A stretch of DNA of 32,172 nucleotides from Tranquillimonas alkanivorans (GTDB taxonomy: Bacteria > Pseudomonadota > Alphaproteobacteria > Rhodobacterales > Rhodobacteraceae), in NCBI RefSeq assembly GCF_900115595.1, contig NZ_FOXA01000031.1, positions 1 through 32,172 on the forward strand. The letters are read 5' to 3'. The translations under genes were made by a program, and so were the position numbers. Shown piece by piece: positions 357 to 18,882 of this stretch (its first letter is position 1; each line of letters opens with the position of its first letter). The notes beneath the pieces are model-generated. The model searched no databases and was not told where the DNA came from. It saw nothing but the letters and a program-made list of their open reading frames with translations.

Positions 357-2016
357 TTATCCTTGGCCTGCCTTACGCGCTTTCGTGCTGCGTTCACTAA
401 TTCCCAAGGCAAAATGCAGCATTGGGTGGATGGTGACCTTTGTCTCTGGAGTTATCTGATGAGAAAGTACAGGTCGGCCTGTCTCATGTACCCACTGCCA
501 AGGTGAGTGCGAAGTCAACTTCAGACCCACCGCACCGACCATGTGGAGGCGCATATAAACCTCTTGAGCACACGAAACTGGGTCAAGGATAGCATCCCCA
601 GATACGGAAGCATGGATTTCTTGCCAAAGGCGATCCCTGTGCATTTCTTCCGTGGCACCGATCCGGTCGTAAAGTAGTTCTACATATTTTTCGTTGCATT
701 CGTTCGCGACCGAAAAGTAGGGGGGGGCTGCCGGCGAGCGTGCCCAGAAGCACTTCAATAGCAGGAAATGTTCCTTGCCATTCATAGCGTAAGGTCTCCA
801 AGCGGAGCTCAGAGTAGCGATGCTCACCCTTGAGTAAGTCCGCCTTGCTAACGGAGGATTTACCCTCACTTTGCTGCAGAGTAGCATTGACAAAGTTGAT
901 GATGTCACGCGGCCGCATGAGCGTTCGCTCAACCATGTAGTTCCAGGTCGAGGTTCGCATGTCGACGCGCTGCTTAAAGATGTGATCAAAGTGAACGTTT
1001 TCGGATGAATACTTCCACTTAAAAAGGTGATTGATCCGCTTCTCAGTTAGCTCCCAAAGCTGTTCCTTGGACCATTTCAACCTTACGATGTGGTCGTTGT
1101 ACTTTTCGATTTGCGCTTGGGAGGTTGGCGCCTCCCTAACCATTCGCTCATAAACGTCATTTCGAAGCGCAACAACAACCTTAAAGTTCCGAAGCTTCTG
1201 CAGCCCCTTAACCCCCTCAAATAGCGCCTGAATGAGTTGGTACTTAACCGAATCATCAACCCACGGCTCATCGAGTTGATCAATTATAATAAAATACTTG
1301 TCCTGCCTTTGCCGAGTGTACTCAGACAGGATTGATATTACCTGCCCGAGCTCCGCGATCATCTTCCCGTCTACGAACTTCCTCGCTCGCTGTTGCAGTT
1401 GCACCTTTTTCTCGGAACTCAGCCCACGAGCATACCCCGCTCTTGCATGAAACTTTTGTACTTCCGCTCCGAGAGAGGCGTTTACACTTGTCTCTAATGC
1501 ATCTGTTATCTCTATTATATTTTCGTCGACCGTATTCCAAAACTGATGCTCATGGTCGCCTACGAACCTCTCGAGTTTCTCTCTCCTTCCGTCTACCTTA
1601 ACAAAATCAATTAGCTTCTTGGCAACAAATCGGAACTTGTCTTTGTCATCAGCCTTGAGGATTAGCTTGATGTACTCAATACACAGCACCTGCTTCCATA
1701 GAGACTGAAAGAAAATGCTCATGTCCACACCAATTCCGCGCATGAATTGAACCGCATCGCTGTTTGCAATATGGCTCATGGCCATTTCGTGCACCTCAAA
1801 AGCGCGACAGTTTTCCTCCGATTTCTCAATCATTCGAAGAAGCGCAGTTTTTCCACTCCCGGTGCTTCCCATGACAAAGCTGGCCGGGTTAGAGACGTCG
1901 CGCAATTCGTTGAGCGCCGGATGGTCAACGAAGCAGTTGAAGAGAAACTGGTCGTCGTTCTCGGCGCCGTTGTGCCCAATATTTATGTTGGAGGAAAATA
2001 CTATCCTGTTTGCCAC
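357..2016 (-). pseudogene. P-loop ATPase, Sll1717 type, frameshifted at a C8 tract
   Basis: A large P-loop NTPase. Walker A is at residues 50-57 (GSTGSGKT) and a Walker B stretch (FIIIDQLDE) is near 242-250, followed by a helical region rich in charged residues. These resemble STAND/AAA-like ATPases annotated as Sll1717 family, which often lie in defence islands. The start chosen is a GTG at 2016 with a GAGAG eight bases upstream. The reading frame runs to a stop at 583, but its last 47 or so residues look random. The sensible C-terminus, containing VELLYDRIGATEEM and VTIHPMLHFALGI, lies in another frame ending at 357. The two frames join exactly at eight C residues (720-727 on the plus strand as G): removing one C gives a 552-residue protein. 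The gene is visibly more AT-rich than its neighbours and separated by 181 nt from the operon above, suggesting independent acquisition. It may be a true pseudogene, a phase-variable gene or a sequencing error. Confidence 0.72.
720..727 (-). repeat. C8 homopolymer at the frameshift point
   Basis: Eight consecutive G on the plus strand (C on the coding strand) inside the ATPase gene. The coding frame before the tract continues sensibly after it only if one C is removed (C7). Homopolymers of this length slip during replication and are also a common place for sequencing errors. Confidence 0.85.
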
Positions 2017-2197
2017 GCTCAGCTCTCATCTCTGACGGTTTTCGCTCAACCTGAGGCATAAGCGCAGGTTGGTCAACTCAGGAAACGGGAGGCGGCCCGA
2101 AGTCTCCTTCAACGGAAATCCGAAATCCGGCGCACCTGGAAGAGCAGCAGTCCGCGTCCGGCCTCTTGGCGCTCAGCGCGGGGCTTAAAATCACTGT

Positions 2198-2968
2198 TCA
2201 GCGCTCAAGACTATTTCGAAAAATTCGGCGGTGCTCTCCCAAATATATCAGATGCTGTTCTGAGAACGTGAGCGGTGCCTCAACGTGTGCCTCAAGAATA
2301 GCACGCGCACCATCTGAGAGTGCGGGAGAGTACCGGGGCACGCCGCCGGAACTGAAGGTGACCAAGTAGCGGTCGAATGCCGCGTCCCACAGAGCTGAGA
2401 GCAAAAGGCCATTGTAGACGTCTAAACGCTCGGCGTCGGTCGCACAGGCTGCCCAGGGTTTCATGTGGCTCGCGCGAAGAAGAGCTGGATCGTCAATACC
2501 TGTCAACGGGCACCTTCCACCCCAGAAGTGCATCAGCGCGTCTCTGAAGATGTCCTGACCCACGCGCTGTACGACGAGCCGTTCGGCTTCTGTTGATCGG
2601 GGACGACCGCGGGTCTCGGCCTCAAATCTCCTCAGGGGGTCATCGGGCAAAGCTTTTGCCAAGTCGTAGGCGCGCGACAATGCAGCGTGGAGGTCATGCA
2701 AGTTCTCGAACTTGTAGCGCGCAAGGCCGGGGCCGGCGGTTTCGGCCGGCGAGCCGAATTCACCAACGACACCTGCGTGGTCGATGGCGAGAAACCAGGG
2801 TCCATGAGCGCTACCGGCTGCCACCCAGATCGCGCCGGGCGCGCTGTGGCTACGGCGCTGCACCCATCCCGAGACTACGCCATCGTCAATCCGCCAACCG
2901 TTTTGCCAGACCGCCTGCTCCAATTGAACTTGCGCAAGCGGATGGATCCGGGTCGAAGGTGCAGTCAC
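2198..2968 (-). CDS. HNH endonuclease (HNH_2 type)
   Basis: A 256-residue protein whose C-terminal half is a clear HNH endonuclease of the HNH_2 kind. C153, the RASHMKPW stretch with H168, and the VYNGLLLSALWDAAFD stretch with N186 match the ββα-metal fold; the last His position is replaced by Asp, as is usual in this subfamily. The first 120 residues form a separate domain I do not recognise, possibly for target recognition. The start is a GTG at 2968 whose first bases overlap the TGA of the metallopeptidase gene in a 4-nt GTGA junction, so it is almost certainly translationally coupled and part of the DISARM-like operon. Related HNH proteins are found as restriction nucleases next to methylase genes. 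Here it may supply DNA cleavage for the methylase and helicase set; that role is inferred from position only. Confidence 0.85.
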   Translation of the reverse strand: MTAPSTRIHPLAQVQLEQAVWQNGWRIDDGVVSGWVQRRSHSAPGAIWVAAGSAHGPWFLAIDHAGVVGEFGSPAETAGPGLARYKFENLHDLHAALSRAYDLAKALPDDPLRRFEAETRGRPRSTEAERLVVQRVGQDIFRDALMHFWGGRCPLTGIDDPALLRASHMKPWAACATDAERLDVYNGLLLSALWDAAFDRYLVTFSSGGVPRYSPALSDGARAILEAHVEAPLTFSEQHLIYLGEHRRIFRNSLER

Positions 2969-4140
2969 ATGACCCCCTTGCGGTTGAAGGGCATGTCGAG
3001 AAGTCTCTCAACCCGATTTGCACAGGTGAGGACGCGGTGAACATCGAGATCGGCGAATGAACCCTGATAGGTATCGAGATACGATTCGCTGCGAGGCGAG
3101 AGGCCCGAGCGTTTGGCGATCACATAAGCGACGCTCTCGGCCTCGATTTCGCGCAAGGCGACCTCGGCCGGTCGGTACGGTTTGATTTTTCGCGCAGGGT
3201 CGGGGCCACAATGGCCAAGGAAGACGTGGGCGAGTTCGTGCACCAGCGTGACGACCTGGGTGGCCACAGGATGATTGCGATTGACTGCGATCCGAAAGGG
3301 AACCGGCGCGCCTTCTTTGCCTTCCGAAGCCAAGCGTCGCGCATATCCCGCTGAACGATCTCCCTGATCGAGCCACAGCAACTCGAAGCGCTCCTCCTTC
3401 ATCTGCCATTCGGCGTAGCGCATGAAGCCCGATGGCACGGTGCCGGCCGTGGGGAACGAAAAGGCTGCCTCGGGCAGGTCACGGCCTTCGGTATCCTGCA
3501 CGTCGAAGACGAAGTCCACGGGCCCGAAATTGCGGAGAATCACGAGGGGGCGAACTCCTGGTTTGGGAAAGCGACCATATCTTTCCCGCCAATCCTTTGC
3601 CGTCATCGCATAGCTGAGGCCCGGCTTCTGGACATGGAGGATCATCGCGTTGAACGGTGCCATGTTTCGCAGCCTGGCCGTGAAGGCAAATAGTTCTTTC
3701 AAGGCGTCGCTCGAGCTATAGAGCTGCGTCTCGGCAATTAGCTGGTCGATCAGCGCGCGCGACGTCTCCTCTCCGGGATCGACTTCGGCGGGCGTTGGGA
3801 CAGCATGCAACAAGCGCGGCTTAGGGGCGAAGAGAGCTTGTAGGGCAGCAACGTCGTCATCAGGGAGCTCGATGCTCGCCCAAACGGAGTCTTCCGCGAC
3901 GATGGACGCGGTCTCTGGGGCGAGAAGCTCGCCGTCGGCGTCGCGACCGCGCTGGCCGAGATTGGCCCGGAGATACCGGATCATCTTTTGGCGTCCTTGA
4001 TAGAAGAGGTGGCCGCGGACAATTGCATCCATTCTCTCCAGGATGTCGGCGTCCGACAGTACCTCCCAGCCGCCCTCTTCGATGATCGCGTCGAAATGGT
4101 AGCGCGCCATCTCGAATAAATCGAAGTCGAGACCGCGCAT
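2965..4140 (-). CDS. ArdC-like / ImmA-IrrE-type zinc metallopeptidase
   Basis: A 391-residue protein. The C-terminal part carries HELAHVFLGH (residues 301-310) and a downstream EIEAESVAYV helix (331-340), giving the HExxH plus Glu zinc site of the gluzincin-like ImmA/IrrE and ArdC peptidases. The middle (about 125-215), with KDWRERYGRFPKPGVRPLVI, resembles the ArdC N-terminal single-stranded-DNA-binding domain. The N-terminal 65 residues are helical and unassigned. I start it at the ATG at 4140 because this overlaps the methylase stop as TAATG; an in-frame ATG at 4188 would add 16 residues inside the methylase gene. ArdC proteins from plasmids protect incoming DNA against restriction, so a relative encoded inside a putative restriction-type operon is unexpected. 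It might regulate or activate the system by proteolysis, or bind unwound DNA. Zinc-peptidase assignment is firm; role is open. Confidence 0.82.
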   Translation of the reverse strand: MRGLDFDLFEMARYHFDAIIEEGGWEVLSDADILERMDAIVRGHLFYQGRQKMIRYLRANLGQRGRDADGELLAPETASIVAEDSVWASIELPDDDVAALQALFAPKPRLLHAVPTPAEVDPGEETSRALIDQLIAETQLYSSSDALKELFAFTARLRNMAPFNAMILHVQKPGLSYAMTAKDWRERYGRFPKPGVRPLVILRNFGPVDFVFDVQDTEGRDLPEAAFSFPTAGTVPSGFMRYAEWQMKEERFELLWLDQGDRSAGYARRLASEGKEGAPVPFRIAVNRNHPVATQVVTLVHELAHVFLGHCGPDPARKIKPYRPAEVALREIEAESVAYVIAKRSGLSPRSESYLDTYQGSFADLDVHRVLTCANRVERLLDMPFNRKGVM

Positions 4141-7100
4141 TACAGCCCCATGTCTCGGAAGGTGCCGTCGCTCTCCATGCGATCCCAAGCTTCGAGGACG
4201 AGGCGTCGGGTACGGTATTCGCCGTGGAGGCGGACCTCCTTGTCCTTGAGAACGCGGAAGGTTTCGGACGGGTAGTCGGAGCCCTTCACGTCAGCGGGAT
4301 CCAGGATGTAGCGCAGTTCATCGCGGCTCAGGCCGTAGGCGCGGGCGTAGAAGGCGTCGAGCTCGGCCCGCAGATGGGCGCGCCGCGCCTCGTCCCACGG
4401 GAAGGGGGGACCATTGTAGCTCAGGTCACGGGCGAAGGAAGCCAGTGTATGGGATGTGTAAGTTAGTTCCAGAACGCGAGGTACGACGTGGGAGAGGCGG
4501 GGCTCGCTGTAGAAGTCAGGAAGAAGAACAGGGAACTGCTTGATATAGCCGTACGTCAGATGCGTTCCTCCCACCTTTTGACGGGCGATGAAGTCCAAAG
4601 TGAGGGCGCAAAGATTGCCGGTCAGGGCGGCCCACTGTTGGGGCATCGCATCGATGAACATGAGCGGGAGAACATGACCCACTCCTACTCTTGGAAATGC
4701 TGTTGCGATGACGCTCCGTTCGTCTGTGGCGCGCGCGATATCCCGCCAACCCATAAGCCAGCCGCGATGCCAGCCGCGAGACTTCAAGCGACTTTCGACG
4801 CCGGCTATCGCCTCCTTTTCTCCTGCAACGCGAACATCCTCGGCAGGAACCCAATATCTCGGGCGAGGCTCCCAGTCTGGATTGGCCTTCTCCTCTGGTG
4901 TGGCATCTGCCGACGACGATCCTTCGGCATCATACCCTGCCCAGCGATGATCGAACTGGTGGATCATCTTCGCTTCATAGAGCGGCACGTACCGCTTCGG
5001 ACCGCGCGGCCCGCCGCCAGTCAGGTCCAGCACGTGCGCCGCACTGCCCTCGACCGCCAGTGCGCCCTGGGCAGGACGAACGCCCTCCGCCACCCAGTCG
5101 GTGCCGTTGCGGACGAAGCCTTCAGCCTCCAGTTCTGCCGCGGTGCGGAAGAGCCCGCTGTCGTTCGACATGTCGAACAATCGCGCGAAACTGACGCCCC
5201 ACGGATTGCCCACCGCGCCCTTGCTCTCGTCGATTAGGACCGGTGCGTTGCGGTAAATCTTGGCTGTCAATTCCGCATCCCAGCGCGAACGGAAGACCGG
5301 TGCGGTCTTGGTATTCGGGTTGATCGCGGCGATCTGTTCAGGCGACAGGGTGAAATTGCGCTCCGGCTCTGCCAGTTGCGCGGGTTCGGTCAGGAAGAAG
5401 GCGAAGCGCGCCTCGGGCTCGTCCCGCCCCAACGTCAGCAGGCAAAACTTGAAGCTGCGGTGCACGGCCGGAAATGTCGGCGCAGAGTTCTCGAAATCTA
5501 CCAGTCCGGCGATCCGCCTCTCATCGACCAAGTGCCCGAAGAAGGGCGCGGTCGTCGCATCTGTCGCGATGCCTGTGGGCACGATCACGCCAGCGCGGCC
5601 CGTGTCGCTCACGAGCCGTGAGAACAGCTCGGCGAAGAGCGCATAGGTGTTGACGTCGCCGGTGCCCGTGAAGGGGAAGCGTCCTCCATGGTCGCCGGGC
5701 ACGCGGACGAACGTCGATGTCGCCTCCGACAGACGCTTGGCCGTCTCGAACTCCTCAAATAGTGCGCGTTTGCTCGTGTCCTCCGGTGCAATTCGGAGTG
5801 CCTTGATCAGCCGGTCGCGCGCGGCCTTGTTGGCGGCAGTGGCGATCTCCGGATCCCGAGCGGCGAAGAATTCCTTTTCCTGGAGCTTGATACGCTCCCA
5901 GGGCGGATTGCCCAGCACCACGTCGAACCCACCGCGGCCCATGATGTCAGGGAACTCCAGCGGCCAGTGCAGCGCGCTCGCGCGGGTCGCTGCCTTCGCA
6001 TTCTGCATGATCGGCTTTCGGCCCTTGCCCTGACCGACGGCGAGCCAGACGTCTTCCGACGTCGGCACCGTGCGGTCATCGGTCGAGGCCGGGACTTCGC
6101 CCGTCTTCGGCAACAGGAAAGCGGCTGTATAGAGATTGCAGCCCATGCGCGCGCGCTGGAAATCCTCCTGCTTGCGCAAGTCGCGATAGGCCTGTGCCTT
6201 GGCGGCGATATCCTCGACCGTCTCCTCCGGCAGGTCGCGCAGGTCGGTGAATTCGGCCGAGAGCGGTGCCGTGGGTAGGTCGGATCGTCCGCCGGTGAAA
6301 TCGAACGTGCCTTGGCCGCGCTTCGCGTCCTTGTTGGCCTTTTCATAAAATTTTGCGACCTGCTTCTCGTCGCCGGTGAGGGGCTTATAGGCGGCGTCGG
6401 GGATGCCTCCCTCGAGCGCCTTCAGGTCGAAGACGCCCAGCAAAGCATCGCCGCAGCGGATCTGCGCATCGAAGAAGCCCAGCGGCAGGCCGGGGTCCAC
6501 TGTCTCGATCCAGAGCGCTACCTTTGTGAGCTCCACCGCCATTGGATTGCGGTCGACGCCATGGATGCAGCGTCGGGCAACGTCACGCAGCGCGTGGCGG
6601 AAATCTGTGCTCGACGGCGTGCCCTCGGCCCGCAGAGCAGCAACACGCGTGGCGATACGATTTGCGGCGGCCAGCAGGAAATGGCCTGATCCGCAGGCCG
6701 GGTCGATGACCGTGAGCCGCAAGAGCGCCTCGGCCGGGTCGTCGCCTTTCTCGCGTGTCTCGGCCTCGGTTCGTTCCAGAACGGGCGCGAGAGCCGTGTC
6801 GAGCAGCGCTTCCACCAGCGAGGTCGGCGTGTAGTACGAGCCGGTGGTCTTGCGCTGGTTACCCTTGGTTTCTGCCGCGTCCGTGGCGAAGATCAGGGTG
6901 CGGCCGTCGGTTTCGACCTGGGGCTGGAGTTCGAGGAGCGACTCGTAAACGGAGCCCAGCTCTTCTGTTTGCATGGCGCGCCAGTTGACGGGGACGAGGG
7001 CGCCGTCCTGCCTCATCCAGCCGAGCTGGAAGATGGCCTGCAGGAAAGCGCGGTTGGGCAGTCGGGCCGCGCGCAGGTCCGGCATCTGGCCTTCGGCAAA

Positions 7101-8201: not shown

Positions 8202-10951
8202 CAGGAGGCTCCGGGGAGAAGGACAAAAAGGCCGATGACGTCCGGTGGCAGAACCGGCTCAACGCTGACGCGGGAGATGCCCTTGGCGGCCGCGCGGACT
8301 CGAGCGTGATCCTCGATGAGCTCGTCGGCCCTCGCGCGGACATGATCTGAGATCGCCCCATCGAGATGAGCTTCGAGTCGCACACGCGCCTTGTCGGTCT
8401 GTCGATCGCGCGCGACTGGTGCGAGATCGCCGCTTGCGGTGGCGAGCAACATGTCGCGGACGGGTGCGCCGGATGTCGCGGTGCCGTCAGGTCCGACGGC
8501 CACCAGACTGGCCTCTTCTGCGAGCAGCAGGCGTTCCTGTCGGCCGTGCACGGTGATCTTGAATCGTAGGCGCATCAGGACGACGTCCATGCGCTCCGCG
8601 ACCGCGGGTGTGGGCCAGGCGCCTACACGGCCGACATCGAGACCGGGCAGGGCGTCCGGCTCCAGGGCGGTTTCGAGAAGAGCCTCCGATAGGGTCGCGA
8701 CAAGCGGATGGGCGCGGCCTGCGAGGGTCGTGCCCGAAGGCGCCGGTTCGGCTTCTGCAAGACGGACGGTCCCTTTCAGGCCGCGGTCAGACAGCCTCTC
8801 GCGCAGGACATGCGGCAATCCGTCGAGAGGTGCATGTACGACGCCCTTCTTCCGATCCGTCGGGGTGTCGAAGCGCTTCATCGCGGCGCCGATGAAGTCC
8901 CGTGCTGCGGCCGGGCTTCCGATGATGTCGCGGGTTTTTTCCCATTCGGGCGCGACGTGATGGGGCTTCAGCGCATTCTGAGCGAAGCGGGAGCGCGAGC
9001 GCTTCTCGTTTTCCTCGGCATCGCGCCACATGGCCTCCAGTTCGCGAGTGCCCTCGGAGAGAGCGTCGAAAAAGTCAAATTGGCGTTCGCTGCGGCGTCG
9101 CAACATCATTGACGCCATGAGCGCATCCGTAACCGGCCCACGTTCATCCGGGAGAGGGACGGTGACCCCAGTGGCCTTCTGGATGGCCTCCGCCTTGCGC
9201 AGGATGACGTCCAAGACGGCGCCGTCGATCGCGCTGTCAGGCGAGAACATCAGCACAGAGCGCACGGTATCGGCAGGTTGCCCAAAGCGGTTGACGCGAC
9301 CCTCCCGCTGCTGGTGCCGGGTCGGGTTCCAGGAAAGGTCGTAATGGACGACCGTGTCGAAGAGGAGCTGCAGGTTGATCCCCTCTGACAGACAGTCCGT
9401 GGCCACGAGAATTCGAGGCGTCTCATCCGCCATGCTGGCGACGCGATCGCGACGCTCTTCCGGAGTGAGCAGGCCTGTGACCGTCTCGACGCACGCCTTC
9501 GGGAACTTCTTCTTCAAGGCGCGCCCGACCTCGGTCGCCGTGGCGATATATCGGCAGAAGACCACCGGTTGCCCGCCGTCCTCGACGATTGGCTTCATGA
9601 CCTTGATCAGGCGGTCGAGCTTGGGATCGGGCGCCGTCGTCAGCGCCTCCGCTTGCGCAATCAGGTCCGCAAGGGCCGCATCGCCGATCTCCATGGGCGT
9701 CGGCTCCACATCGACCGCATCCTCTTCGTCACCGTCATCGTCGTAGAGCTGGGGCTCCATCCGCTCCTCCTCGAGGCCCGCACGGTTTCTAAGAGCAGAC
9801 AGGGCAGCCGCAGGGGAAGAGCCGACGCACCGCATCAGGGCCAGTGTGCCCCAGAACGCAAGACGACGCTCTCGTTGCCCCGTGCCGGCGGTCTCGACGA
9901 CGCCGAAACAATAGTCGAGGACGGCCTCGTGGAAGTCGCGATGTGCGGGTGTCAGCCTGTACGGCTCTTCCTTGCTCAGGTGCGTGGGGAAGGCCGATGC
10001 CTCCTGCCACTCCTCATCGGTCAGATCGCGTCGGCGACGTTGCACGAAGTGGCGGGCAAGCCTCTGGCGGTACCGATCGTCATCGAAGTCCATGGACGCA
10101 AAGTCGGCGTGGATGAGCGACAACAGGCGTCCGAATGCGTCCTCGTCCCCCGAATGCGGCGTCGCGGTCAACATCACGATCGCCCGCTCCTCGTCGCGTG
10201 CCAGACCCTTCAGGAGAGCAAAGCGCTGCTGCTTGCCTTTGTGGGTCCCGACGCAGGCATGCGCCTCGTCGACGATGACGAAGCCCGGACAGGCCTTCGC
10301 GAAAGCATCACGTCGCTTCTCCGATTTGATGTAGTCGAGGCTCACGACTGTCTGCCGGTACGCGTCGAACAACGACTGGGAGATGGGAAGCCCGCGTTCC
10401 AACCGTGCCGCTGAGGCGGAGGTCACGGCTGTTGCGTCGATGCCGAACCTGTCCTTCAGTTCTCGAATCCATTGCTCGACGAGGTGAGGCGGGCAGAGCA
10501 CCGAGAAGGCGTCGGTTTCGCCCCGGTCCATGAATTCCCGAAGGATCAGACCCGCCTCGATGGTCTTTCCGATGCCCACGTCATCCGCGATGAGGATACG
10601 CGGCACCTCCTGGCGGAGTGCCATGAGAAGAGGCACCAACTGGTAGCTGCGCGGCTCAAAGTTCAACTGCGCAGCAGACCGAAAGGGACCTGCGCCCCGG
10701 CGCAGGGAAAGTCGCAGGGCTTCTGCCAGGAGAGCGGCCGTTGCTTGCACGGCAGGCGTTGCGTCGGCCGGGAGTTCGAAACGCGCCGATTGGGGCGGTT
10801 CAAGCTCCAGATCGGGAAAAAGGAGGGTGGCATCTTCCTCTGCACCCGAGAGCGGGCGCAGATGGAGCCATTCGTCGCGGGGGCTCGGGAGAGCCACCCA
10901 TTCACGTCCACGCGCGCGAACGAGATCCCCCGGCGCAAACTGGGTGGTCAT
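8201..10951 (-). CDS. SNF2-family helicase, DISARM DrmD-like
   Basis: A 916-residue superfamily 2 ATPase of the SNF2 type. Motif I is DDVGIGKT (123-130), motif II DEAH (228-231), motif III MLTATPHSG (260-268), motif V ATDCLSEGINLQ (517-528) and motif VI QREGRVNRFGQ (548-558). The RapA-like ordering and the roughly 350-residue C-terminal extension are typical of DrmD, the SNF2 protein that accompanies the class 1 methylase in DISARM. A very acidic insertion (about 395-420, including YDDDGDEEDAVDVE) separates the two RecA lobes. The ATG at 10951 overlaps the preceding stop by ATGA and the stop overlaps the methylase start, so its product is made in step with the others. Probably it translocates on double-stranded DNA to help discriminate or process unmodified phage DNA; this is inferred from the family. 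Confidence 0.9.
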   Translation of the reverse strand: MTTQFAPGDLVRARGREWVALPSPRDEWLHLRPLSGAEEDATLLFPDLELEPPQSARFELPADATPAVQATAALLAEALRLSLRRGAGPFRSAAQLNFEPRSYQLVPLLMALRQEVPRILIADDVGIGKTIEAGLILREFMDRGETDAFSVLCPPHLVEQWIRELKDRFGIDATAVTSASAARLERGLPISQSLFDAYRQTVVSLDYIKSEKRRDAFAKACPGFVIVDEAHACVGTHKGKQQRFALLKGLARDEERAIVMLTATPHSGDEDAFGRLLSLIHADFASMDFDDDRYRQRLARHFVQRRRRDLTDEEWQEASAFPTHLSKEEPYRLTPAHRDFHEAVLDYCFGVVETAGTGQRERRLAFWGTLALMRCVGSSPAAALSALRNRAGLEEERMEPQLYDDDGDEEDAVDVEPTPMEIGDAALADLIAQAEALTTAPDPKLDRLIKVMKPIVEDGGQPVVFCRYIATATEVGRALKKKFPKACVETVTGLLTPEERRDRVASMADETPRILVATDCLSEGINLQLLFDTVVHYDLSWNPTRHQQREGRVNRFGQPADTVRSVLMFSPDSAIDGAVLDVILRKAEAIQKATGVTVPLPDERGPVTDALMASMMLRRRSERQFDFFDALSEGTRELEAMWRDAEENEKRSRSRFAQNALKPHHVAPEWEKTRDIIGSPAAARDFIGAAMKRFDTPTDRKKGVVHAPLDGLPHVLRERLSDRGLKGTVRLAEAEPAPSGTTLAGRAHPLVATLSEALLETALEPDALPGLDVGRVGAWPTPAVAERMDVVLMRLRFKITVHGRQERLLLAEEASLVAVGPDGTATSGAPVRDMLLATASGDLAPVARDRQTDKARVRLEAHLDGAISDHVRARADELIEDHARVRAAAKGISRVSVEPVLPPDVIGLFVLLPGAS

Positions 10952-11874
10952 GATGCATCTTCCTTCTTAAAAGCCTCAGCCTGCTGCCATTCGTGATAGT
11001 TCATTCTCGAACCGACCACCTTCCATTCCAGGCGGCCATTCGCGTTTCGGTCGAGGACGATCGCAGCCGCCGCGGAAGGACTCGTGAACGACCACGGCTT
11101 GGAGAAGGTGAGTTTTTCAGGACCTGCGGCCACGAGAACCCCGTCACCCAGGAGTTTCTCTTTCAACCCGCCGTAACTTTGCTGAACGAAGCCTGTGCCT
11201 GTCAGAGCTTCGGAACCTTCAAGGACGACGAATTCTCCTTCTTCTTCGACGGCTGTGGCCTGAACGCCGCTTCGATGTCGGATTTCGAACTTCACGTCCT
11301 GCGCCGTCCGTTCGGCCGCGGGTCGTGCCGCCTCCGAGGCCGCGCGCGGTTGCGGCTTGAGCATATCGAGCCCGATCACCGGCAGGATGATCTGAAGGTT
11401 CGCCAGGAATTGCTCCATGTTGGCGCGGTCCGCCTCGGGTAGGCGGCGCCTGGCCGTTTCGGGCTGCGTCCCATTATCCAGGGTTGCCCGACCTGCCTTC
11501 GCAGTCATCTCGATCAGCCGTGCTTCAAGGTATTCGGCATGTCCTTTGGAGAGGTCGTCGTCGCTGGTGGTGACGGTGATTGCGGTCTCCCAGAAGTCCC
11601 GCTTCAAGGCGCTCTGCTTGATCCGTTCCGCGACGGAATTCCCTGATCCGATATAGACCCTTGTTCCGACACTCTTCTCCGGGTCGGGACCCGCGAGAAC
11701 GTAAACACCAGTGCGATCGACTTCTTCGCGGATGGTCAACTCGCCGAAAGCTGCATCGCCGCTCACGAACAGTACGCCGGTCCAGCCATGGATCGACGCC
11801 TTGCGCAGTCCCGTCGGCTTGCCGTCGACGAGGAACAGTTGGATCGTTCGCCCGAAGCTTTCACCCGATATCAT
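10948..11874 (-). CDS. GIY-YIG nuclease with C-terminal DUF4357
   Basis: A 308-residue protein. The nuclease core has GVYVL (56-60) and VYIG (73-76), matching the GIY and YIG strands, with R84 and with E118 in YLEARL as the likely metal-binding Glu. After a linker of about 80 residues, the last 85 residues are a DUF4357 domain, recognisable from the SPSAAAAIVLDRNANGRLEWK stretch near positions 270-292. This pairing is known for GIY-YIG proteins annotated beside restriction-modification genes. It sits between the large helicase and the SNF2 gene with 4-nt ATGA overlaps on both sides, so it is a core part of the operon. In ordinary DISARM the nuclease is a phospholipase-D protein, DrmC, which is absent here; this gene may take its place. 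Nuclease activity is predicted, not shown. Confidence 0.86.
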   Translation of the reverse strand: MISGESFGRTIQLFLVDGKPTGLRKASIHGWTGVLFVSGDAAFGELTIREEVDRTGVYVLAGPDPEKSVGTRVYIGSGNSVAERIKQSALKRDFWETAITVTTSDDDLSKGHAEYLEARLIEMTAKAGRATLDNGTQPETARRRLPEADRANMEQFLANLQIILPVIGLDMLKPQPRAASEAARPAAERTAQDVKFEIRHRSGVQATAVEEEGEFVVLEGSEALTGTGFVQQSYGGLKEKLLGDGVLVAAGPEKLTFSKPWSFTSPSAAAAIVLDRNANGRLEWKVVGSRMNYHEWQQAEAFKKEDAS

Positions 11875-14800
11875 ACTGCCTCTCGGATTAGCGAAGCGAG
11901 GAGCTCGGGCACGCCTTCAGCAGGTGAGGCGGGCAACGCATGCACATCCCACCCCTTGGCATCCGCGAGATCTACGGCGTCGCCGGGGATGGGGCCCGCG
12001 GTGGCCGCAACCCGGCTCCTGGGCCAGACGTAAGGAAGCACGACGTCCTTGATATTGAGCTCCTCGCCATCGGGGCGCGGCAGGCCTGCCGCCTCGAAGG
12101 CGGCGATCCAAGGATCGCTGGAGGAGTGGGCAGTTACTACCTCGGCCTTCGCCACCGCTATTGAAAGCAGGAGATCCAGGGCCGCCTCGTCGCGCCGGTC
12201 AATGACCTCGTGATCTGGTTGATTGAAGTAGGAGAGAAGGCACCTGTAACAGCCGGCGACGCAGGGGGCTTCTTTGTCGGAGAGCGCCGCGCGATCCTTC
12301 GAAGCAAGCGCGTCTTCGACACCCGAATAATGCATCAAATTAAGCGCGGCATCCACGACCCTGCGAAGTAGCGAAGTCTCGCGCATAAGCCGTCCCAGCA
12401 CACCGGCGCCGCCTTCGGTCGCCTCGTACAGAAGGATGGTTCTGCGTTCGGTCCGCTCCGGAAGCGGCTCGCCCATAATCTCGCCTTCTTCAAGCTGGAA
12501 CACGATCTCGATTCCGCGCATGAGGGCGTGCTGCACGGTAGCGAGCGCGTCCTGCGACCACCTTTCCGGGTCGGAGAACCGGATGAGGAGAGAGTTCTTT
12601 CTGTCGTGTACGATCGGAACGATCCGCTCGGGATAAGTCGCGTCCGGATCCGTGCGGTCCTCCTCCGCAACCTCGTCCTGAAGACGTGCCCAGCGTCCGG
12701 TCGACGGGTCGATCGGGAAGCCAACAATCTGCGGGTCCGACCGGCGCTTCAGGCCGAGGTTCAACCTCATGATATCGGCCGAGTTGGCGTATTGAATGGT
12801 CGCAAGGGCGTGACCGTCCAGCGTGAGCTTGCACTCTGTCACGTCCAGCGCACCGTCCCGTTCGGGCCAAGCGAAGACAGTCCGGACCTCAAATCCCTGA
12901 CGGACCCGCTCTTCGTCATTGGCTGTGATCCGCTCGGCCGGAAGCGTCTCCACGTTGTCGATGCGAAGCGTGCGATGGATGGCAACTCCGCCGGCCATGG
13001 GAACATCGCATGCGTGGCACCGCTCGCGTTCGACGGTGTGACCGGCCCCGCAATTTGGGCACATGAAAACCTTCTCGGTTGCGAGCGTGCGGCCGTCGGA
13101 GGAAACCGAGCCCGGCGGCAGCTTGGCCTTGTGGACCCGGTAGGCGCGCCCTTCGTGATAAATCAGGCTGCGTGGACCGAACTCCGAGATAGCCAGGAAT
13201 CGTGCCCGCTGGAGGAAGGCCGCCCGCGCGTCGCTGCCTCCAGCGGGGACGAAGGCGTAGAGCGGCAGGCGCGGGAAATTGTAGCCGGGCAGAAATCCCT
13301 CAGTCGCGAGATAGCGATACGTGTAAAAATCGCTCCCGTTTCGGGCCTTCCCGTTTTCGAGGATCCCGATCTGTTGGCTGGCAGATTGGGCCTGGGCATC
13401 CAAACGCGCCCTGTCTTTCCCCGAAAGCCCCGGCCGACGCAGTTTCGCCTGCGTCTCGGCCAGTTGACGATGTGCCGAACCATGAAGCGTCCGCCAGCGG
13501 TCGAATGCGCGGTCGAATTCCGTTGCTGCACCTCTGGCTGTTCGATCGATCCAGCCGTCCACGTCTTCCAGCCAATCGGGCTTCGGCCCGTCGAAATGAT
13601 CGAGCAGCGCATCGACCACCCGACGCATCGGCGGAACCGCCCTTGCGACGACATCGGCATCTTCAATCGCGGCCCTGATCTCGTTGCGCAGAGGGAGGGT
13701 GTCGCCTTCGAGGTTCAGAACCTCCGGGATGTTGGCCGAAAGCGGCATCCGCGTCTCGGAAAGCCAGACGGCCTGGAGGTGCGCGCGAACCAGATCCTCG
13801 TTGGCCAGATCGAGCGCGGGCGGGCGAACGCTTCCGGCGACCATCTCATGGATCCGGCGGAAGTAGTACTGGTCGTGCGGGCTCTGCGCCGCACAGTATG
13901 TGGTGATTGTCGCGGCCTGGCCAGAACGACCAGCGCGCCCGGCGCGCTGCGCATAGTTGGCCGGTGTCGGCGGCACGTTGCGGAGGTAGACTGCGTTGAG
14001 CGACGAGATGTCGACGCCCAGTTCCATCGTTGGCGAGCAGAACAGAGCGGGAAGGAACGACGTGCCCTCGCCCTCGCGGATCATCTCGGCTCGGCTTTCC
14101 TCGATGAGCTCCTGGTCGTGCTCGCCGAAGCGGAAGCGCCACTCTCGCCACTCTCGCTGAAGCGATGATACCTGGGCTGTATGTTCCCTGGATTCCATTC
14201 CCATGAACGGAGAGCGTCCCTTGAGGAGGTCCTCGGAGACGTCGCGGTAGAGCTTCTGGAAGTAAGAGTTGTGCTTTTCTGCCACGCCCTCGATCGCGGG
14301 TCCCGGCAAGAGGCGTACAACGTTCGGCTGGATCTGCCATCCGTCAAGATCGGAGAGGGTGCGCAAGCCCTGCACGAGGCCGTACTCCTCGAGACGGTCG
14401 AGCAACCAGTGCATGAACGCGAGGTACTCGTCTTCGTTCAAGCGCCGCCCAAGCACACTCTCCTTGTTGATGCCGCGCGCAAGTCCGCTGCGATATCCTC
14501 CTCGCAGGATCAGAGCGTCGTCGCGCTTCGATTGCTCGCGGCGCGGGGGCGACTCCAGCACGAGGGCGGATTGCCCGCGAAGATCCTCCTTTGGGTCGAT
14601 GGCCCAAGGAGCGCACAAGAATCCGCGCGTGCGGCCTTTAAGCGGGTCCAGCTCCTGCGGGTCGAGTGCGGTGGTCGCAACCGCCAGCCCCTCCAGCATC
14701 GTACCCAGCACGGCACGAGCAATTTGCTCCCTCGCCTCAGGCTCGAGCGCGCGCCAGACATCGGGCGCGGAGGCGATCACCTCCTCGTCCTCCAGGAATT

Positions 14801-17069
14801 CGTCAATCGCGACGAAGCCGACCGTCAGGAGGCCGACACCGATGAGGTTGGGGTAGGTAAAGCGCCACCCGCGACGCATGTCCGACCATGCCCGGTGCTC
14901 AAGAACCTTCGCCAGCGTCCGGGAGGCATCGACGACGGTGGCACCCTTTGTCTCGGGGTGAGCCATCCAGTACTTGCGCAGAGCCTTCTTCTCAGGAAGG
15001 TAGCCGAGCGCGCGCTGCACCTTCGTTCCGAACCCATCGTCGGTGAGGCCCTCCTCGCCAGCGTCGAGCACCGCACGCAGGATGGCCCCGCGGAGGAGCG
15101 TCACAAACACGGAGTCGTTGAAGTGGCCCGCCTGCAGAGCTGAATCCTGGCGGTTGTCGCCAAAACCCAATGTCTTGCGCTTTTCTGCGTCCGCAATGCC
15201 GATATCGGCATCGTTCATCAGGCGCAGCATCGCCGTCACGAGAGTTGTCGTGGCCGAACTCCGCCCCTCAGCCGACAGCCCGCCCAGCTTGTTTCGCTCA
15301 CGCGCTTGCGGAGCCGGTTGATCGTGGCATGCGAGGCAAAAACCAAAGCGGCCGGGCAAGAACCAGAAGTCGCGTCCATCTTCTCCGACAAGTCCGTCGG
15401 CTCGGATCTTCATGCGTCGGGGTTGCTGCTTGCGCCGGTTGTTGCGTAGCACCAGGACGCCCCGCCGCTCCTCACGCCATTCCTCCGGATATGTCTCGAT
15501 ATCACCAGAGAACCGGAAATCATCTCCAGGTTCTTCGAACGGTGTCAGGTAGCCCGGTTCTTCTTCGTCCTGCGCCGTCGAGGCGGGCGCATCGTCTATA
15601 TCTCGTGGGATGGCTTCACGTCCGTTGGGGCCTTCCCGCAAGGTGACTACGTGGTACTCTTGGCCACAGCTCCTGCAGAACCGAGTTGGATAGAGACGTG
15701 ACCCGGGATCATTCGGGTCCTCGCGTTGGCCCTCAAGCAAAACGGTGCGCGGTGCCGCTTTCAGAGTGGTAAGTACATCTCCAGCGCCCGACACGAAGCG
15801 GTGCAGCTTGAACGCCATGAACGCGGACCCGCCAATCCCACCGCGATCTTTCTCCGGGAGTGCTGCGAGTGCCAGGAACTGGGCGAGGCGCTCCGCGGCG
15901 ATTTCCCGATCAATTTCGGCGTCTGCAGCCAGCAGGTCGACCGCGTCATCCAGAGGGATCGGGGAGCGACGGCTTCGCGCGCGCGCCTCGTCGAGGCCGA
16001 TGCTCAGCTCCGCCCACACTGCGAGCGGGTGTTTTTTCAGATCGGCGTCGGTGAGCTGATCCGGAATCGGCTCTTGCAGCGTCGCCTTTAGTTGTGCCTT
16101 CGCCCAATCCAGTGACAGCTCGTCATCTGTCGCGCGCCGTAAGCTCTCGGTGATCACCGCATCGGGGGTGATGAAGGCTCCGAATATCCGCGATGCCACG
16201 CCGGCGACCACTTCGGTGGGCCTGTCCGCCACATCTTCGGTGGCCATGGTGGCCGACGTGCCGATGCAGACCGGCTCTTCGCCGGGAAGGCGGCATCTGT
16301 CGCGAAGCCGGCGCACCAGCACCGAAACGTCGGCGCCCTGTCTTCCACGGTAGGTGTGGAGTTCGTCGAGCACGATGAACTCGAGGCCCTTACAGTTTTC
16401 GATGACGCGAGCGTCAGTTTCATCCTGCCGGGTGAGAAGCAGCTCGAGCATCATGTAGTTAGTTAGCAGGATGTCTGGCGGGTTAGCGGCGACCTTGCGG
16501 CGCTCGGCATCGCCCTCCTGGCCGGTGTATCGCGCCACGGTCGGCTTCATGCCTTCGGGTAGATCGGACTGGCCGACGAATTTCTCGATCTCGCTGATCT
16601 GAGAGTTTGCGAGGGCGTTCATCGGGTACACGATGATCGCGCGCGTGCGGGAGGCTTCGCCGGCCTTCCGCGCGCGCAGAACTCGATCGACGATGGGAAC
16701 AAAGAAACATAGGGATTTGCCAGATCCCGTTCCGGTTGTGACCACAAAGCTCTGTCCGAGGAGAGCCTTGGTGATCGCCTCCGCCTGGTGACTGTGAAAA
16801 CGGATTGGAGCAAGCGCACCATCGCGCGTCTCCACGCGGAAAACGTCGGCCGTCTCAGGTGCAAGTGCCCCGTCGTCAGCGAACTCCTGCGCCGTCTTAG
16901 CCTGCTTATAGGCGGGGTTCAGCGCCAGGAACGGCGAAGGCCAGAACTTCTTCTTCTCGTAGTGAGCGTCGATCCGAGCGGCCAAATCCTCGGCGCGAAT
17001 TGACGTGAAGGATCGAGAAAAGCTCGCGTACTCGTCGATCACCGCCTGGTCGAATTGGAAAGCCTTCAT
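11871..17069 (-). CDS. DEAD/DEAH helicase with DUF1998, YprA/MrfA type, DrmA-DrmB-like fusion
   Basis: A 1,732-residue helicase. Lobe 1 has TGTGSGKS (112-119), DELH (235-238) and GTSATM (270-275). A long insert follows with CRSC (465-468) and CLAC (578-581), likely zinc ligands, then GDNRQDSALQAGHFND (637-652), which is characteristic of the DUF1998-linked helicases. Lobe 2 has SPTMELGVDISSL (1012-1024) and QRAGRAGRSGQ (1041-1051). CPNC (1336-1339) and CHAC (1350-1353) form another zinc knuckle. The DUF1998 (MrfA zinc-binding) region ends with LLYEATEGGAGVL (1545-1557) and CVAGCYRCLLSYFNQ (1602-1616). In DISARM these functions are split between DrmA and DrmB; here one chain carries both. I chose ATG at 17069 because GGGAAGGA lies just upstream; the open frame extends 147 nt further. 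It is the first gene of the seven-gene array. DNA unwinding or translocation is the expected activity. Confidence 0.9.
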   Translation of the reverse strand: MKAFQFDQAVIDEYASFSRSFTSIRAEDLAARIDAHYEKKKFWPSPFLALNPAYKQAKTAQEFADDGALAPETADVFRVETRDGALAPIRFHSHQAEAITKALLGQSFVVTTGTGSGKSLCFFVPIVDRVLRARKAGEASRTRAIIVYPMNALANSQISEIEKFVGQSDLPEGMKPTVARYTGQEGDAERRKVAANPPDILLTNYMMLELLLTRQDETDARVIENCKGLEFIVLDELHTYRGRQGADVSVLVRRLRDRCRLPGEEPVCIGTSATMATEDVADRPTEVVAGVASRIFGAFITPDAVITESLRRATDDELSLDWAKAQLKATLQEPIPDQLTDADLKKHPLAVWAELSIGLDEARARSRRSPIPLDDAVDLLAADAEIDREIAAERLAQFLALAALPEKDRGGIGGSAFMAFKLHRFVSGAGDVLTTLKAAPRTVLLEGQREDPNDPGSRLYPTRFCRSCGQEYHVVTLREGPNGREAIPRDIDDAPASTAQDEEEPGYLTPFEEPGDDFRFSGDIETYPEEWREERRGVLVLRNNRRKQQPRRMKIRADGLVGEDGRDFWFLPGRFGFCLACHDQPAPQARERNKLGGLSAEGRSSATTTLVTAMLRLMNDADIGIADAEKRKTLGFGDNRQDSALQAGHFNDSVFVTLLRGAILRAVLDAGEEGLTDDGFGTKVQRALGYLPEKKALRKYWMAHPETKGATVVDASRTLAKVLEHRAWSDMRRGWRFTYPNLIGVGLLTVGFVAIDEFLEDEEVIASAPDVWRALEPEAREQIARAVLGTMLEGLAVATTALDPQELDPLKGRTRGFLCAPWAIDPKEDLRGQSALVLESPPRREQSKRDDALILRGGYRSGLARGINKESVLGRRLNEDEYLAFMHWLLDRLEEYGLVQGLRTLSDLDGWQIQPNVVRLLPGPAIEGVAEKHNSYFQKLYRDVSEDLLKGRSPFMGMESREHTAQVSSLQREWREWRFRFGEHDQELIEESRAEMIREGEGTSFLPALFCSPTMELGVDISSLNAVYLRNVPPTPANYAQRAGRAGRSGQAATITTYCAAQSPHDQYYFRRIHEMVAGSVRPPALDLANEDLVRAHLQAVWLSETRMPLSANIPEVLNLEGDTLPLRNEIRAAIEDADVVARAVPPMRRVVDALLDHFDGPKPDWLEDVDGWIDRTARGAATEFDRAFDRWRTLHGSAHRQLAETQAKLRRPGLSGKDRARLDAQAQSASQQIGILENGKARNGSDFYTYRYLATEGFLPGYNFPRLPLYAFVPAGGSDARAAFLQRARFLAISEFGPRSLIYHEGRAYRVHKAKLPPGSVSSDGRTLATEKVFMCPNCGAGHTVERERCHACDVPMAGGVAIHRTLRIDNVETLPAERITANDEERVRQGFEVRTVFAWPERDGALDVTECKLTLDGHALATIQYANSADIMRLNLGLKRRSDPQIVGFPIDPSTGRWARLQDEVAEEDRTDPDATYPERIVPIVHDRKNSLLIRFSDPERWSQDALATVQHALMRGIEIVFQLEEGEIMGEPLPERTERRTILLYEATEGGAGVLGRLMRETSLLRRVVDAALNLMHYSGVEDALASKDRAALSDKEAPCVAGCYRCLLSYFNQPDHEVIDRRDEAALDLLLSIAVAKAEVVTAHSSSDPWIAAFEAAGLPRPDGEELNIKDVVLPYVWPRSRVAATAGPIPGDAVDLADAKGWDVHALPASPAEGVPELLASLIREAV

Positions 17070-17682: not shown

Positions 17683-18282
17683 ATACAGGTGAACTCCTGG
17701 CTGGTTTTCCGAGCTACGAGGTAATTTCCATAGCGAACGCAAGGTTCTGCGGGCCTCGTGGTATAGTGATCAGTTCGCCTTTTGCATCGGAGACCGTCGG
17801 CGACAGTGAGCCGAGTGTGGGCGTTGCAGACCTCGGTTCGTCGCATTCCGCGGCGGTTCAAGCGACCCCAGTAGACCAGTTCGGGGGTCATGGCCATGAG
17901 ATCCGCGTGTTGCTGTCGTTAGGCTTCCTGAGGACCAGTGAGTAACATAATAATCCTTACGAGCTGACGTGAACTGCCATACGGAGGCTCGCCTTCCGAT
18001 GGCGTGCCTGCTCTCTTGCCTGCTGCCCGCGAGCCCTTTTTTGCGCCCCCCAACGCAGGCCCCACGTTTCGCGGCCCACGCGAGATCGTCGTTCAGCGCG
18101 ATACTGAACTCGTCGAGGATGGCGCCAAGCTCAGGTAGCCTTCCAAGACCGATGGCAGGCTGAGGTGGCGGTGCTGTTTCTGCCATGTGGCATGACGTGG
18201 CACCACTTCAGCAGCGGAGTATCTCGACGCGGATTTCGTCCTGTGTTTGATACTATCATCGAAAAACAAGGGATCAGCGGAA
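17683..18282. other. gene-poor spacer between the two defence modules
   Basis: Six hundred bases without a gene I can support. Two minus-strand open frames (17679-17897 and 17770-18186) have odd composition and no recognisable domain; the beginning of the second (AILDEFSIALNDDLAWAAKRGA) reads like protein and could be a remnant. Just upstream of the sce7726-family gene, TGCCA and TGGCA half-sites at 18181-18202 repeat three times and could bind a regulator. No tRNA or attachment-site-like direct repeat was seen. Confidence 0.35.
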
Positions 18283-18882
18283 GTGGGAGCCCTCGGAAAA
18301 AATAGCGAGCGCAGGATCCGAACTGCACTGAGGACGCGTCACCTTCGACACCATGATGGACGCCATAATGTGTTGATGATCGACGAGCTTGGGCTTGCCC
18401 ACGCTCAAAGTCGTATCGATTTGGCTGTCTTCAATGGTCACTTGCACGGCTACGAGATCAAGAGTGCTGTCGACACGCTCGATCGCCTGCCGCGCCAACT
18501 CGCGATCTACACGCGTGCACTCCAGAAGCTTACCCTCGTCGTTGCTACCCGTCACCTCGACGCCGCAGAGGCGATCGCTCCGGATTGGTGTGGGCTGACC
18601 GAGATTGTCGAGGGACCGCGCGGTGGCATGACGTTCGCGAGCCGTCGACGGGCACGTCTAAATCCGGGTCTTGATCCGTTCATGCTGGCGCACTTGCTCT
18701 GGCACCAAGAAGCGCAGGACTTGTTGCGCGCGCGCGGTGCCTCAGAGGCCGACGTAAATGCACCTCGGAAGCGGCTCTACCGTTTGCTCGCAGATGAGGT
18801 CCCGGTCCGCGAGTTGGCGCCCGCGATCAAAGCGGCTATGGCGTCGCGAACAAGGTGGCGAGATCATCCGCGACCGTCGTAA
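18283..18882 (+). CDS. sce7726 family protein, PD-(D/E)XK nuclease-like
   Basis: A 199-residue protein matching the sce7726 family: the run from IDELGLAHAQSRIDLAVF to GYEIKSAVDTLDRLPRQ is its hallmark. E35, D46, E58 and K60 are arranged as D...ExK, which is the layout of a PD-(D/E)XK nuclease, with Q72 as a possible further active-site residue; nuclease function is an inference. The start is a GTG at 18283, preceded eight bases away by AAGGGA; a TTG at 18247 would lengthen it by 12 residues. It is the only supported plus-strand gene in the window. It converges on the Beta-family gene, and the two 3' ends overlap by 47 nt, so expression of each may affect the other. Members of this family are repeatedly seen next to sce7725/Beta-type proteins, as here. 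Confidence 0.85.
   Translation: MGALGKNSERRIRTALRTRHLRHHDGRHNVLMIDELGLAHAQSRIDLAVFNGHLHGYEIKSAVDTLDRLPRQLAIYTRALQKLTLVVATRHLDAAEAIAPDWCGLTEIVEGPRGGMTFASRRRARLNPGLDPFMLAHLLWHQEAQDLLRARGASEADVNAPRKRLYRLLADEVPVRELAPAIKAAMASRTRWRDHPRPS

What the first reader, a model, noticed from the sequence alone, without database searches (positions are those of the whole stretch)
357..17069. DISARM-related array with an unusual composition
A fused helicase-DUF1998 protein, SNF2 helicase and Eco57I-class methylase, which are DISARM-type parts, are chained by 1-4 nt overlaps with a GIY-YIG/DUF4357 nuclease, an ArdC-like HExxH peptidase and an HNH nuclease, followed by a Sll1717-type ATPase. There is no phospholipase-D drmC. 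I recall that related YprA-helicase systems have recently been proposed (one under the name ARMADA), but I cannot tell whether this array fits that definition.
Basis: partly seen in the sequence, partly recalled or inferred. Interest (0 to 1): 0.8.

Follow-up and report, generated by a model that had tools for sequence, protein, structure and literature searches.

The report
ARMADA defence operon with swapped nuclease
This gene cluster looks like a member of ARMADA, a recently described bacterial anti-phage defence family, from a branch in which the DNA-cutting part fused to the main helicase has decayed while a separate HNH nuclease gene is nearly always carried next to it, suggesting that these systems exchange their cutting tools like cassettes.

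Summary
Seven minus-strand ORFs lie at 583-17069; six are chained by 1-4 nt overlaps. The seventh (Sll1717 ATPase) lies 181 nt away, has much lower GC and was not found in 127 other loci as far as fetched.

YprA/DUF1998 helicase, SNF2 helicase and PglX-like methylase stand in ARMADA Type I order (2025 preprint), not DISARM: helicase and DUF1998 are fused and no PLD nuclease is present. HNH is conserved with them. GIY-YIG/DUF4357 (4 genomes) and the M78/ArdC-like gene (9 of 128 loci) are occasional cassettes.

What is new here: the preprint predicts an active Vsr nuclease fused to ARMADA I helicases. In the window and its branch that domain has lost its catalytic stretch; 78 of 81 determinable relatives with such a tail carry a downstream HNH with VcaM4I's catalytic residues, against 0 of 11 with intact Vsr. 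The branch is well supported (100/99) and compatible with a single swap. The GIY-YIG gene, often a Type I restriction accessory, sits between the two helicases.

Best reading: modification-guided helicase restriction with HNH, perhaps plus GIY-YIG, as cutter. New variant of a known kind; nothing tested at the bench.

The parts
11871..17069 (-). YprA-like DEAD helicase with MZB/DUF1998 (1732 aa), first gene of the core; GTGSGKS at 113, DELH at 235
   Evidence: Pfam DEAD 1.6e-26, MZB 4.7e-11, Helicase_C 1.6e-8; PADLOC DruE1 1.9e-93; motifs
11874..12143 (-). C-terminal remnant of the Vsr nuclease domain of the helicase, catalytic stretch lost
   Evidence: hhalign chain to intact Vsr tails through intermediates; AF2 model pLDDT 87, Foldseek ranks 1, 2, 4 are PvuRts1I, PvuRts1I, I-Bth0305I, none significant
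10948..11874 (-). GIY-YIG/DUF4357 protein (308 aa), accessory cassette between the two helicases; often a Type I R-M accessory elsewhere
   Evidence: PADLOC PDC-S14 6.7e-110, Pfam DUF4357 6.4e-14; contexts
8201..10951 (-). SNF2/RapA (BrxHII/DrmD/DpdE-like) helicase (916 aa); GIGKT at 126, DEAH at 228
   Evidence: PADLOC DpdE PDLC02853 8e-186, DrmD 7.8e-70, BrxHI/II 1.2e-53; motifs
4140..8201 (-). PglX/DrmMI-like N6-adenine methyltransferase (1353 aa); DPACGSG at 500, NPPW at 765
   Evidence: Pfam Eco57I 3e-17, PADLOC DrmMI 4.5e-68
2965..4140 (-). HExxH (HELAH at 301) M78/ImmA-IrrE-like protein, occupant of a variable slot between methylase and HNH
   Evidence: Pfam M78 2.3e-4, below cut-off; relatives in 8 other loci, between methylase and HNH in the 6 where both are seen
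2198..2968 (-). HNH_2 endonuclease (256 aa), conserved last core gene; H168, N186, D195, D199
   Evidence: Pfam HNH_2 1.7e-9; VcaM4I 6yex 2.1e-12; the four residues invariant in 60 of 60
583..2016 (-). Sll1717-family ATPase, neighbour and not core; probably frameshifted at the 3' end
   Evidence: NF047389 3.2e-62; not found in the other 127 loci; GC

Best explanation
The array is an ARMADA Type I anti-phage system of a distinct branch ('HNH branch'). Inferred mechanism: the PglX-like enzyme marks host DNA with N6-methyladenine; the SNF2 (BrxHII-like) and YprA helicases load on unmarked or replicating phage DNA and translocate; because the helicase's fused Vsr nuclease has decayed, cutting is supplied by the HNH protein acting with the helicases. 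The window's GIY-YIG protein is an extra nuclease drawn from a pool shared with Type I restriction operons, and the M78/ArdC-like protein is one of several exchangeable slot genes (regulator or accessory). Shown here: gene content, order, co-inheritance of HNH with the helicases, loss of the Vsr catalytic stretch. Inferred: that the system is active, that HNH is the cutter, and every biochemical step.
For: Order YprA, SNF2, methylase matches the published Type I definition. In the best 80 of 483 GTDB loci found with the helicase, tblastn finds SNF2 in 78, methylase in 73, HNH in 61 (many loci end before the HNH position). Of 109 loci with a readable helicase tail, decayed Vsr: HNH present 78, absent 3, undetermined 13; intact Vsr: HNH present 0, absent 11, undetermined 4. 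Reverse test from HNH: of 295 family genomes 11 have a close HNH (E up to 1e-40); besides the window's own, 9 of 9 informative ones adjoin ARMADA core genes as far as their contigs reach and 1 lies at a contig end; of 385 class genomes 3 others (E up to 1e-30), 2 next to the full core and 1 next to a SNF2 fragment only. Helicase tree: branch 100/99; all 12 HNH rows as one clade not rejected, p-AU 0.49. Helicase and HNH distances correlate (r 0.90, 0 of 999 permutations reach it; helicase-SNF2 0.98; 58 loci). Vsr decay: intermediates align to intact Vsr (prob 98, E 2.6e-14), decayed tails to intermediates (prob 95, E 3e-8); the Asp of the DGPHH motif is replaced and its His pair falls in a deletion. 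HNH residues H168, D195, D199 align with VcaM4I H224, D250, D254, whose alanine variants are drastically impaired. ARMADA Type II in E. coli is anti-phage and needs Walker and NPPW residues; the window keeps such motifs.
Against: No experiment. The correlation rests on essentially one event on the tree, so it cannot by itself show replacement. The genome scan used two peptide patterns taken from the window's own branch, one of them (YFNQPDH) in the tail itself, so the decayed sample is enriched and the intact sample comes from other searches. Decayed tails without HNH exist: L052 (3.0 kb seen downstream), L111 (IS21 in place), L150 (PDF kept, DGxxH lost). Direct profile match of decayed to intact tails is weak (prob 61, E 8e-5) and the fold search gave no significant match. 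An active nuclease elsewhere, such as in the methylase N-terminus, was not tested. HNH could be a modification-dependent accessory rather than the cutter.
Confidence: 0.7

Rival explanations
1. The HNH gene is a separate modification-dependent or type II-like restriction enzyme that only travels with ARMADA, and cutting is not part of ARMADA I in this branch (the helicases block or unwind phage DNA).
For: HNH's only solved relative at E up to 0.01 is the modification-dependent EVE-HNH enzyme VcaM4I; NCBIfam links a relative (L147) weakly to a phosphorothioate-dependent HNH family (1.7e-5 and 24 bits against a cut-off of 180); 3 decayed-Vsr loci have no HNH.
Against: HNH distances follow helicase distances (r 0.90); it is the last gene of the operon, often overlapping its neighbour by 4 nt; in the family sample no close relative of it was seen away from core genes (9 of 9 informative).
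Confidence: 0.2
2. A DISARM variant lacking drmC.
For: SNF2 and methylase score to DrmD (NCBIfam 3.5e-80, 271 bits, under its cut-off of 610) and DrmMI (4.5e-68).
Against: Helicase is fused to DUF1998 (split into drmA and drmB in DISARM), scores far better to DruE (1.9e-93) than to DrmA (6e-12), SNF2 scores best to a DpdE model, and no PLD gene is present.
Confidence: 0.03
3. A composite defence island in which GIY-YIG, M78/ArdC-like and HNH genes are chance neighbours.
For: GIY-YIG and M78 genes are rare with this core (4 genomes; 9 of 128 loci), and GIY-YIG relatives are often in Type I R-M operons (5 of 8 plasmid contexts).
Against: 1-4 nt overlaps at every junction; HNH conserved; the M78 relatives lie between methylase and HNH wherever both are seen (6 of 6); GIY-YIG stands in ARMADA operons in two positions (between the helicases here; after HNH in G637, G534 and, by a fragment, G798).
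Confidence: 0.07

Closest known systems
ARMADA Type I (Bell et al. 2025, PMC12458937)
   Same: YprA helicase with C-terminal DUF1998, then BrxHII/RapA-like helicase, then PglX-like methylase, in that order
   Different: Fused Vsr nuclease decayed instead of predicted active; conserved HNH gene; GIY-YIG and M78/ArdC-like genes. GIY, ArdC, HExxH, accessory and DUF4357 do not occur in the preprint's main text, and HNH only in a reference (supplements not readable)
ARMADA Type II (E. coli NCTC 12900)
   Same: SNF2, PglX-like and YprA components; this type was shown to be anti-phage
   Different: Gene order differs and there is no RelE-GajB-like fourth gene in the window
DISARM class 1
   Same: SNF2 (DrmD-like) and methylase (DrmMI-like)
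   Different: Helicase not split, no drmC PLD nuclease, helicase nearer to Druantia
Druantia
   Same: Best PADLOC match of the helicase is DruE1
   Different: The window has SNF2 and PglX-like genes; no other Druantia protein among the best PADLOC matches of the operon
Type I R-M operons with PDC-S14 GIY-YIG genes
   Same: The GIY-YIG/DUF4357 protein is 77-79% identical to those beside hsdM and hsdS in Ketogulonicigenium and Nitratireductor plasmids
   Different: No match in the window to the HsdM, HsdS and HsdR of the Ketogulonicigenium plasmid

Membership tests
[quoted passage not shown]
ARMADA Type I | Fused C-terminal Vsr nuclease, predicted active | tested here: not met
   Remnant present, catalytic residues lost. 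The preprint gives this as the architecture of its representatives; the clade itself is defined by the helicase tree and operon
ARMADA Type I | Placement in the ARMADA I clade of the YprA tree | tested here: inconclusive
   Own tree links the window to Vsr-intact loci and to cyanobacterial loci with the reversed order described for Type I; no published reference sequence was in the tree
ARMADA Type I | BrxA-like helical insertion after RecA1 | not tested
ARMADA Type II | SNF2, PglX, YprA, then RelE-GajB-like gene in strict order | tested here: not met
   YprA is first; no UvrD/GajB-like family in the operon
DISARM | Helicase and DUF1998 encoded by separate genes drmA and drmB | tested here: not met
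DISARM | PLD nuclease drmC | tested here: not met
Dpd / BRIGADE | 7-deazaguanine biosynthesis and insertion genes | tested here: not met
   No such family among the 23 window proteins given to Pfam; the rest of the genome was not searched
Druantia | DruE helicase with type-specific partners, without SNF2 plus PglX core | tested here: not met
   SNF2 and methylase present; DruE is nevertheless the best helicase profile
PDC-S14 GIY-YIG/DUF4357 family | Full-length profile match, GIY and YIG motifs | tested here: met
   PDLC04923 6.7e-110 over residues 7-301; GVY at 56, YIG at 74

The most novel reading that the evidence does not exclude
ARMADA Type I contains a large branch that replaced its fused Vsr nuclease by a stand-alone HNH nuclease acting in trans on the same helicase engine, and then became a platform for exchangeable effector cassettes (LmuB/SMC-like, M78/ArdC-like, UDG-like, GIY-YIG), so that nuclease type is a swappable module of helicase-based restriction; the window, with HNH plus a GIY-YIG shared with Type I restriction operons, carries two cutters.
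Probability: 0.5. Interest if true: 0.65.

Novelty: new variant of a known kind. Interest (0 to 1): 0.5.

Why it matters
ARMADA was described in 2025, and the two systems tested in that preprint are both Type II. The branch described here gives a natural comparison, same helicases and methylase with a different cutter, that makes the open question of what the helicases deliver phage DNA to directly testable. It also qualifies the expectation that ARMADA I helicases carry an active Vsr nuclease, and supplies a marker (HNH beside the methylase) for finding this branch.

Tried and rejected
DISARM, Dpd/BRIGADE, Druantia and ARMADA II membership were tested and set aside (see Membership tests). I first read the GIY-YIG gene as the replacement for Vsr; it occurs in only 4 genomes of the 128-locus set, so that idea was dropped in favour of HNH. 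Independent repeated swaps were considered because Hydrogenimonas (L106) fell beside a Vsr-intact row in the quick tree; the careful tree leaves it in a polytomy and one clade of HNH rows is not rejected, so I claim one event at most. The M78/ArdC-like protein: profile search of solved structures gave nothing, the AF2 model was poor (pLDDT 57) and its fold search gave no match at E up to 0.001; an ArdC identity is therefore not supported. The GIY-YIG protein has no solved relative at E up to 0.1.

Limits of the counts. Six loci without a readable tail were left out (L055, L058, L070, L080, L135, L149). HNH was called absent with at least 2.9 kb seen after the methylase, or, for L110 and L153 with reversed order, in the whole fetched locus. 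Three 'present' calls rest on partial matches of 60-82 bits (L018, L026, L064) and L106 was set to 'present' by hand from the annotation. L151 has no annotated SNF2 or methylase neighbour and L108 has a divergent motif, so fully comparable intact-Vsr loci without HNH are 7 (L127-L132, L152), or 8 with L108. The residue count used 60 of 76 HNH sequences, those of 200-330 aa.

Full report
What is there. The minus strand of the window carries six genes chained by overlaps of 4, 4, 1, 1 and 4 nt (17069 to 2198) and, after a 181-nt gap, a seventh (2016-583). Profile searches name them as a YprA-type helicase with MZB/DUF1998, a DUF4357 protein with GIY and YIG motifs, an SNF2 helicase, an Eco57I/PglX-like methylase, a HExxH protein close to the M78 family, an HNH_2 endonuclease and a Sll1717-family ATPase. 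Key motifs are present in the first six. The seventh has GC 0.485 against 0.633, was not found in the other 127 loci as far as they were fetched, and is probably frameshifted at its 3' end; I treat it as a neighbour.

Which system. I read the 2025 preprint that defines ARMADA (PMC12458937: abstract, introduction, results up to the start of the synergy section, the MGE section, conclusions and figure legends; not the methods or supplements). Its Type I has the YprA helicase first, then a BrxHII/RapA-like helicase, then a PglX-like methylase; the helicases are nearer to Druantia than to DISARM and carry a predicted active C-terminal Vsr nuclease. The window fits the gene set, the order and the Druantia-like helicase (PADLOC DruE1 1.9e-93 against DrmA 6e-12). 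It fails the DISARM tests: helicase and DUF1998 are fused and no PLD nuclease is present. The same genome holds a second, 47%-identical helicase followed by SNF2, a methylase split over two frames, and HNH.

Synteny. A scan of GTDB genomes with a helicase alignment kept the best 80 of 483 loci. tblastn with the window's proteins found SNF2 in 78, methylase in 73, HNH in 61, the M78-like protein in 10 (2 distant, 1 a short piece) and GIY-YIG or Sll1717 in none. The closest relative, in Ruegeria intermedia (73, 80, 72, 71 and 61% identity for helicase, SNF2, methylase, M78, HNH), has the same order without GIY-YIG. A UDG-like protein (Pfam 0.0013, below cut-off) was found in one genome (2 loci). 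Where methylase, M78-like gene and HNH are all seen, the M78-like gene lies between them (6 of 6). So the place between methylase and HNH is a variable slot.

The reverse search, starting from HNH at E up to 1e-40, gave 11 of 295 family genomes. Besides the window's own, 9 of 9 informative hits adjoin ARMADA genes as far as the contigs reach: helicase, SNF2 and methylase in G007, G839, G914, G885 and G716; SNF2 and methylase in G854; methylase in G798 and G725; a 33-residue methylase end at the contig edge in G534. G751 lies at a contig end. In 385 class genomes at E up to 1e-30 there were 3 others: 2 beside the whole core (G957, G274) and 1 beside a SNF2 fragment (G102). Some of these genomes are also in the first scan.

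The nuclease swap. In the window and the 80 scanned loci whose tail could be read, the helicase tail after the C..CL..Y cluster is short and lacks the motifs seen in other ARMADA I-like helicases, where it reads ..(P/A)DF..(I/V)x(I/V)DGPHH... Three relatives (Acidithiobacillus L107, L126, Hydrogenimonas L106) are intermediate: they align to intact Vsr tails (prob 98, E 2.6e-14) and the decayed tails align to them (prob 95, E 3e-8); the Asp of DGPHH is replaced and the His pair falls in a gap of 9-10 residues. Decayed against intact directly is weaker (prob 61, E 8e-5). An AF2 model of the window's tail is confident (pLDDT 87, 32 sequences); Foldseek's ranks 1, 2 and 4 are PvuRts1I, PvuRts1I and I-Bth0305I (E 0.08, 0.85, 1.4), Vsr-like nucleases by recall, but none reaches E 0.001.

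Of 109 readable loci the decayed ones have HNH in 78, none in 3 (L052, L111, L150) and 13 undetermined; the intact ones have HNH in 0, none in 11 and 4 undetermined (limits in Tried and rejected). In the careful tree of 22 helicases, built without the tail, the HNH rows other than Hydrogenimonas form a 100/99 branch and Hydrogenimonas is unresolved; one clade for all 12 HNH rows is not rejected (p-AU 0.49). Helicase and HNH distances correlate at 0.90, SNF2 and HNH at 0.91, helicase and SNF2 at 0.98, each with 0 of 999 permutations as high, over 58 loci. LmuB-like genes also occur in Vsr-intact loci without HNH (L127, L128, L130, L132), so HNH follows the Vsr state and not that slot gene.

Is HNH active? 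Its only solved relative at E up to 0.01 is the EVE-HNH enzyme VcaM4I (6yex, 2.1e-12). In the printed alignment the window's H168, N186, D195 and D199 fall on H224, N241, D250 and D254 (my count). Passages of PMC7897488 state that H224A, D250A and D254A drastically impair cleavage in vitro. All four window residues are invariant in 60 of 60 family members of 200-330 aa.

The GIY-YIG gene. Relatives (PADLOC candidate PDC-S14) are spread over plasmids (43 records) and genomes (9 of 289 in the class, own included; 26 of 299 in the phylum with another query, own included). Of 8 plasmid contexts read, 5 are Type I R-M operons (H51, H54, H57, H60, H67) and 3 are not (H58, H66, H76). Of 16 genome contexts fetched, 3 held a match to my Type I query genes (L139, L192, L198), 1 was an HNH-branch ARMADA locus (L193) and 12 matched neither. 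So Type I R-M is a frequent but not the only home. A second GIY-YIG/DUF4357 subfamily, about 30-33% identical, follows HNH in G637, G534 and, by an 81-residue fragment at the locus edge, G798. So this accessory family stands in HNH-branch ARMADA operons in two positions, which suggests at least two captures.

Mechanism. From general knowledge of BREX/DISARM-like systems and from the preprint's mutants of ARMADA II (Walker residues and NPPW needed, no growth arrest), the likely scheme is host marking by the methylase and translocation of the helicases on unmarked or replicating phage DNA. For Druantia III a 2026 preprint reports that the YprA-type helicase DruE prefers 3'-tailed DNA (PMC13192584, passages only). 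In the HNH branch I infer that HNH cuts. None of this was tested.

Novelty. Paper searches for ARMADA with HNH, YprA or system terms listed the preprint, two papers that mention ARMADA (PMC13192584, PMC12904381) and otherwise unrelated or general ones (one search listed 20 of 54). The preprint's main text has no GIY, ArdC or DUF4357, and HNH only in a reference. Its supplements could not be read, so members of this branch may be listed there. I file it as a new variant of a known kind.

Noticed in passing
window 18836-21679 (-): A PD-Lambda-2-type anti-phage module lies just upstream: PD-Lambda-2_C (2e-40), PD-Lambda-2_B with HTH and M78 (1.7e-77) and a DUF6932 gene (1.6e-33).
   Followed up: partly
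window 18247-18882 (+): Opposite-strand ORF of 211 aa matching the PADLOC model 'cll' (5.2e-29); meaning unknown.
   Followed up: no
window 357-2016 (-): Sll1717-family ATPase of low GC, likely frameshifted near its 3' end.
   Followed up: partly
L005 5262-17901 (G000 contig C45): Second HNH-branch ARMADA operon in the same genome, 47% identical helicase; its methylase is split over two overlapping frames.
   Followed up: partly
L147 25862-27844 and 48 other loci: The slot after the methylase most often holds an LmuB/SMC-like protein (PADLOC LmuB 2.5e-16; DUF2326 below cut-off); loci with it have longer methylases (median 1505 aa in 45 loci against 1317 in 49).
   Followed up: partly
L136 4237-5388, L193 6195-7112, L174 7-249: A second GIY-YIG/DUF4357 subfamily follows HNH in three ARMADA loci.
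   Followed up: partly
L099, L100, L101, L156, L159: A GIY-YIG/DUF4357 gene sits inside Type I R-M operons, beside hsdS and mostly before the hsdR or helicase gene; I found no account of its role.
   Followed up: partly
L186 1248-1454: HNH next to only a 69-aa SNF2 fragment (81% identical): probable remnant of an ARMADA operon.
   Followed up: no
L008 17244-19181, L103 9950-11908: A GmrSD/DUF262-type gene stands directly upstream of the helicase in some ARMADA loci.
   Followed up: no
L149 13001-27777: Acinetobacter soli plasmid copy of the operon with HNH whose helicase is broken over several frames (hit in 4 pieces).
   Followed up: no
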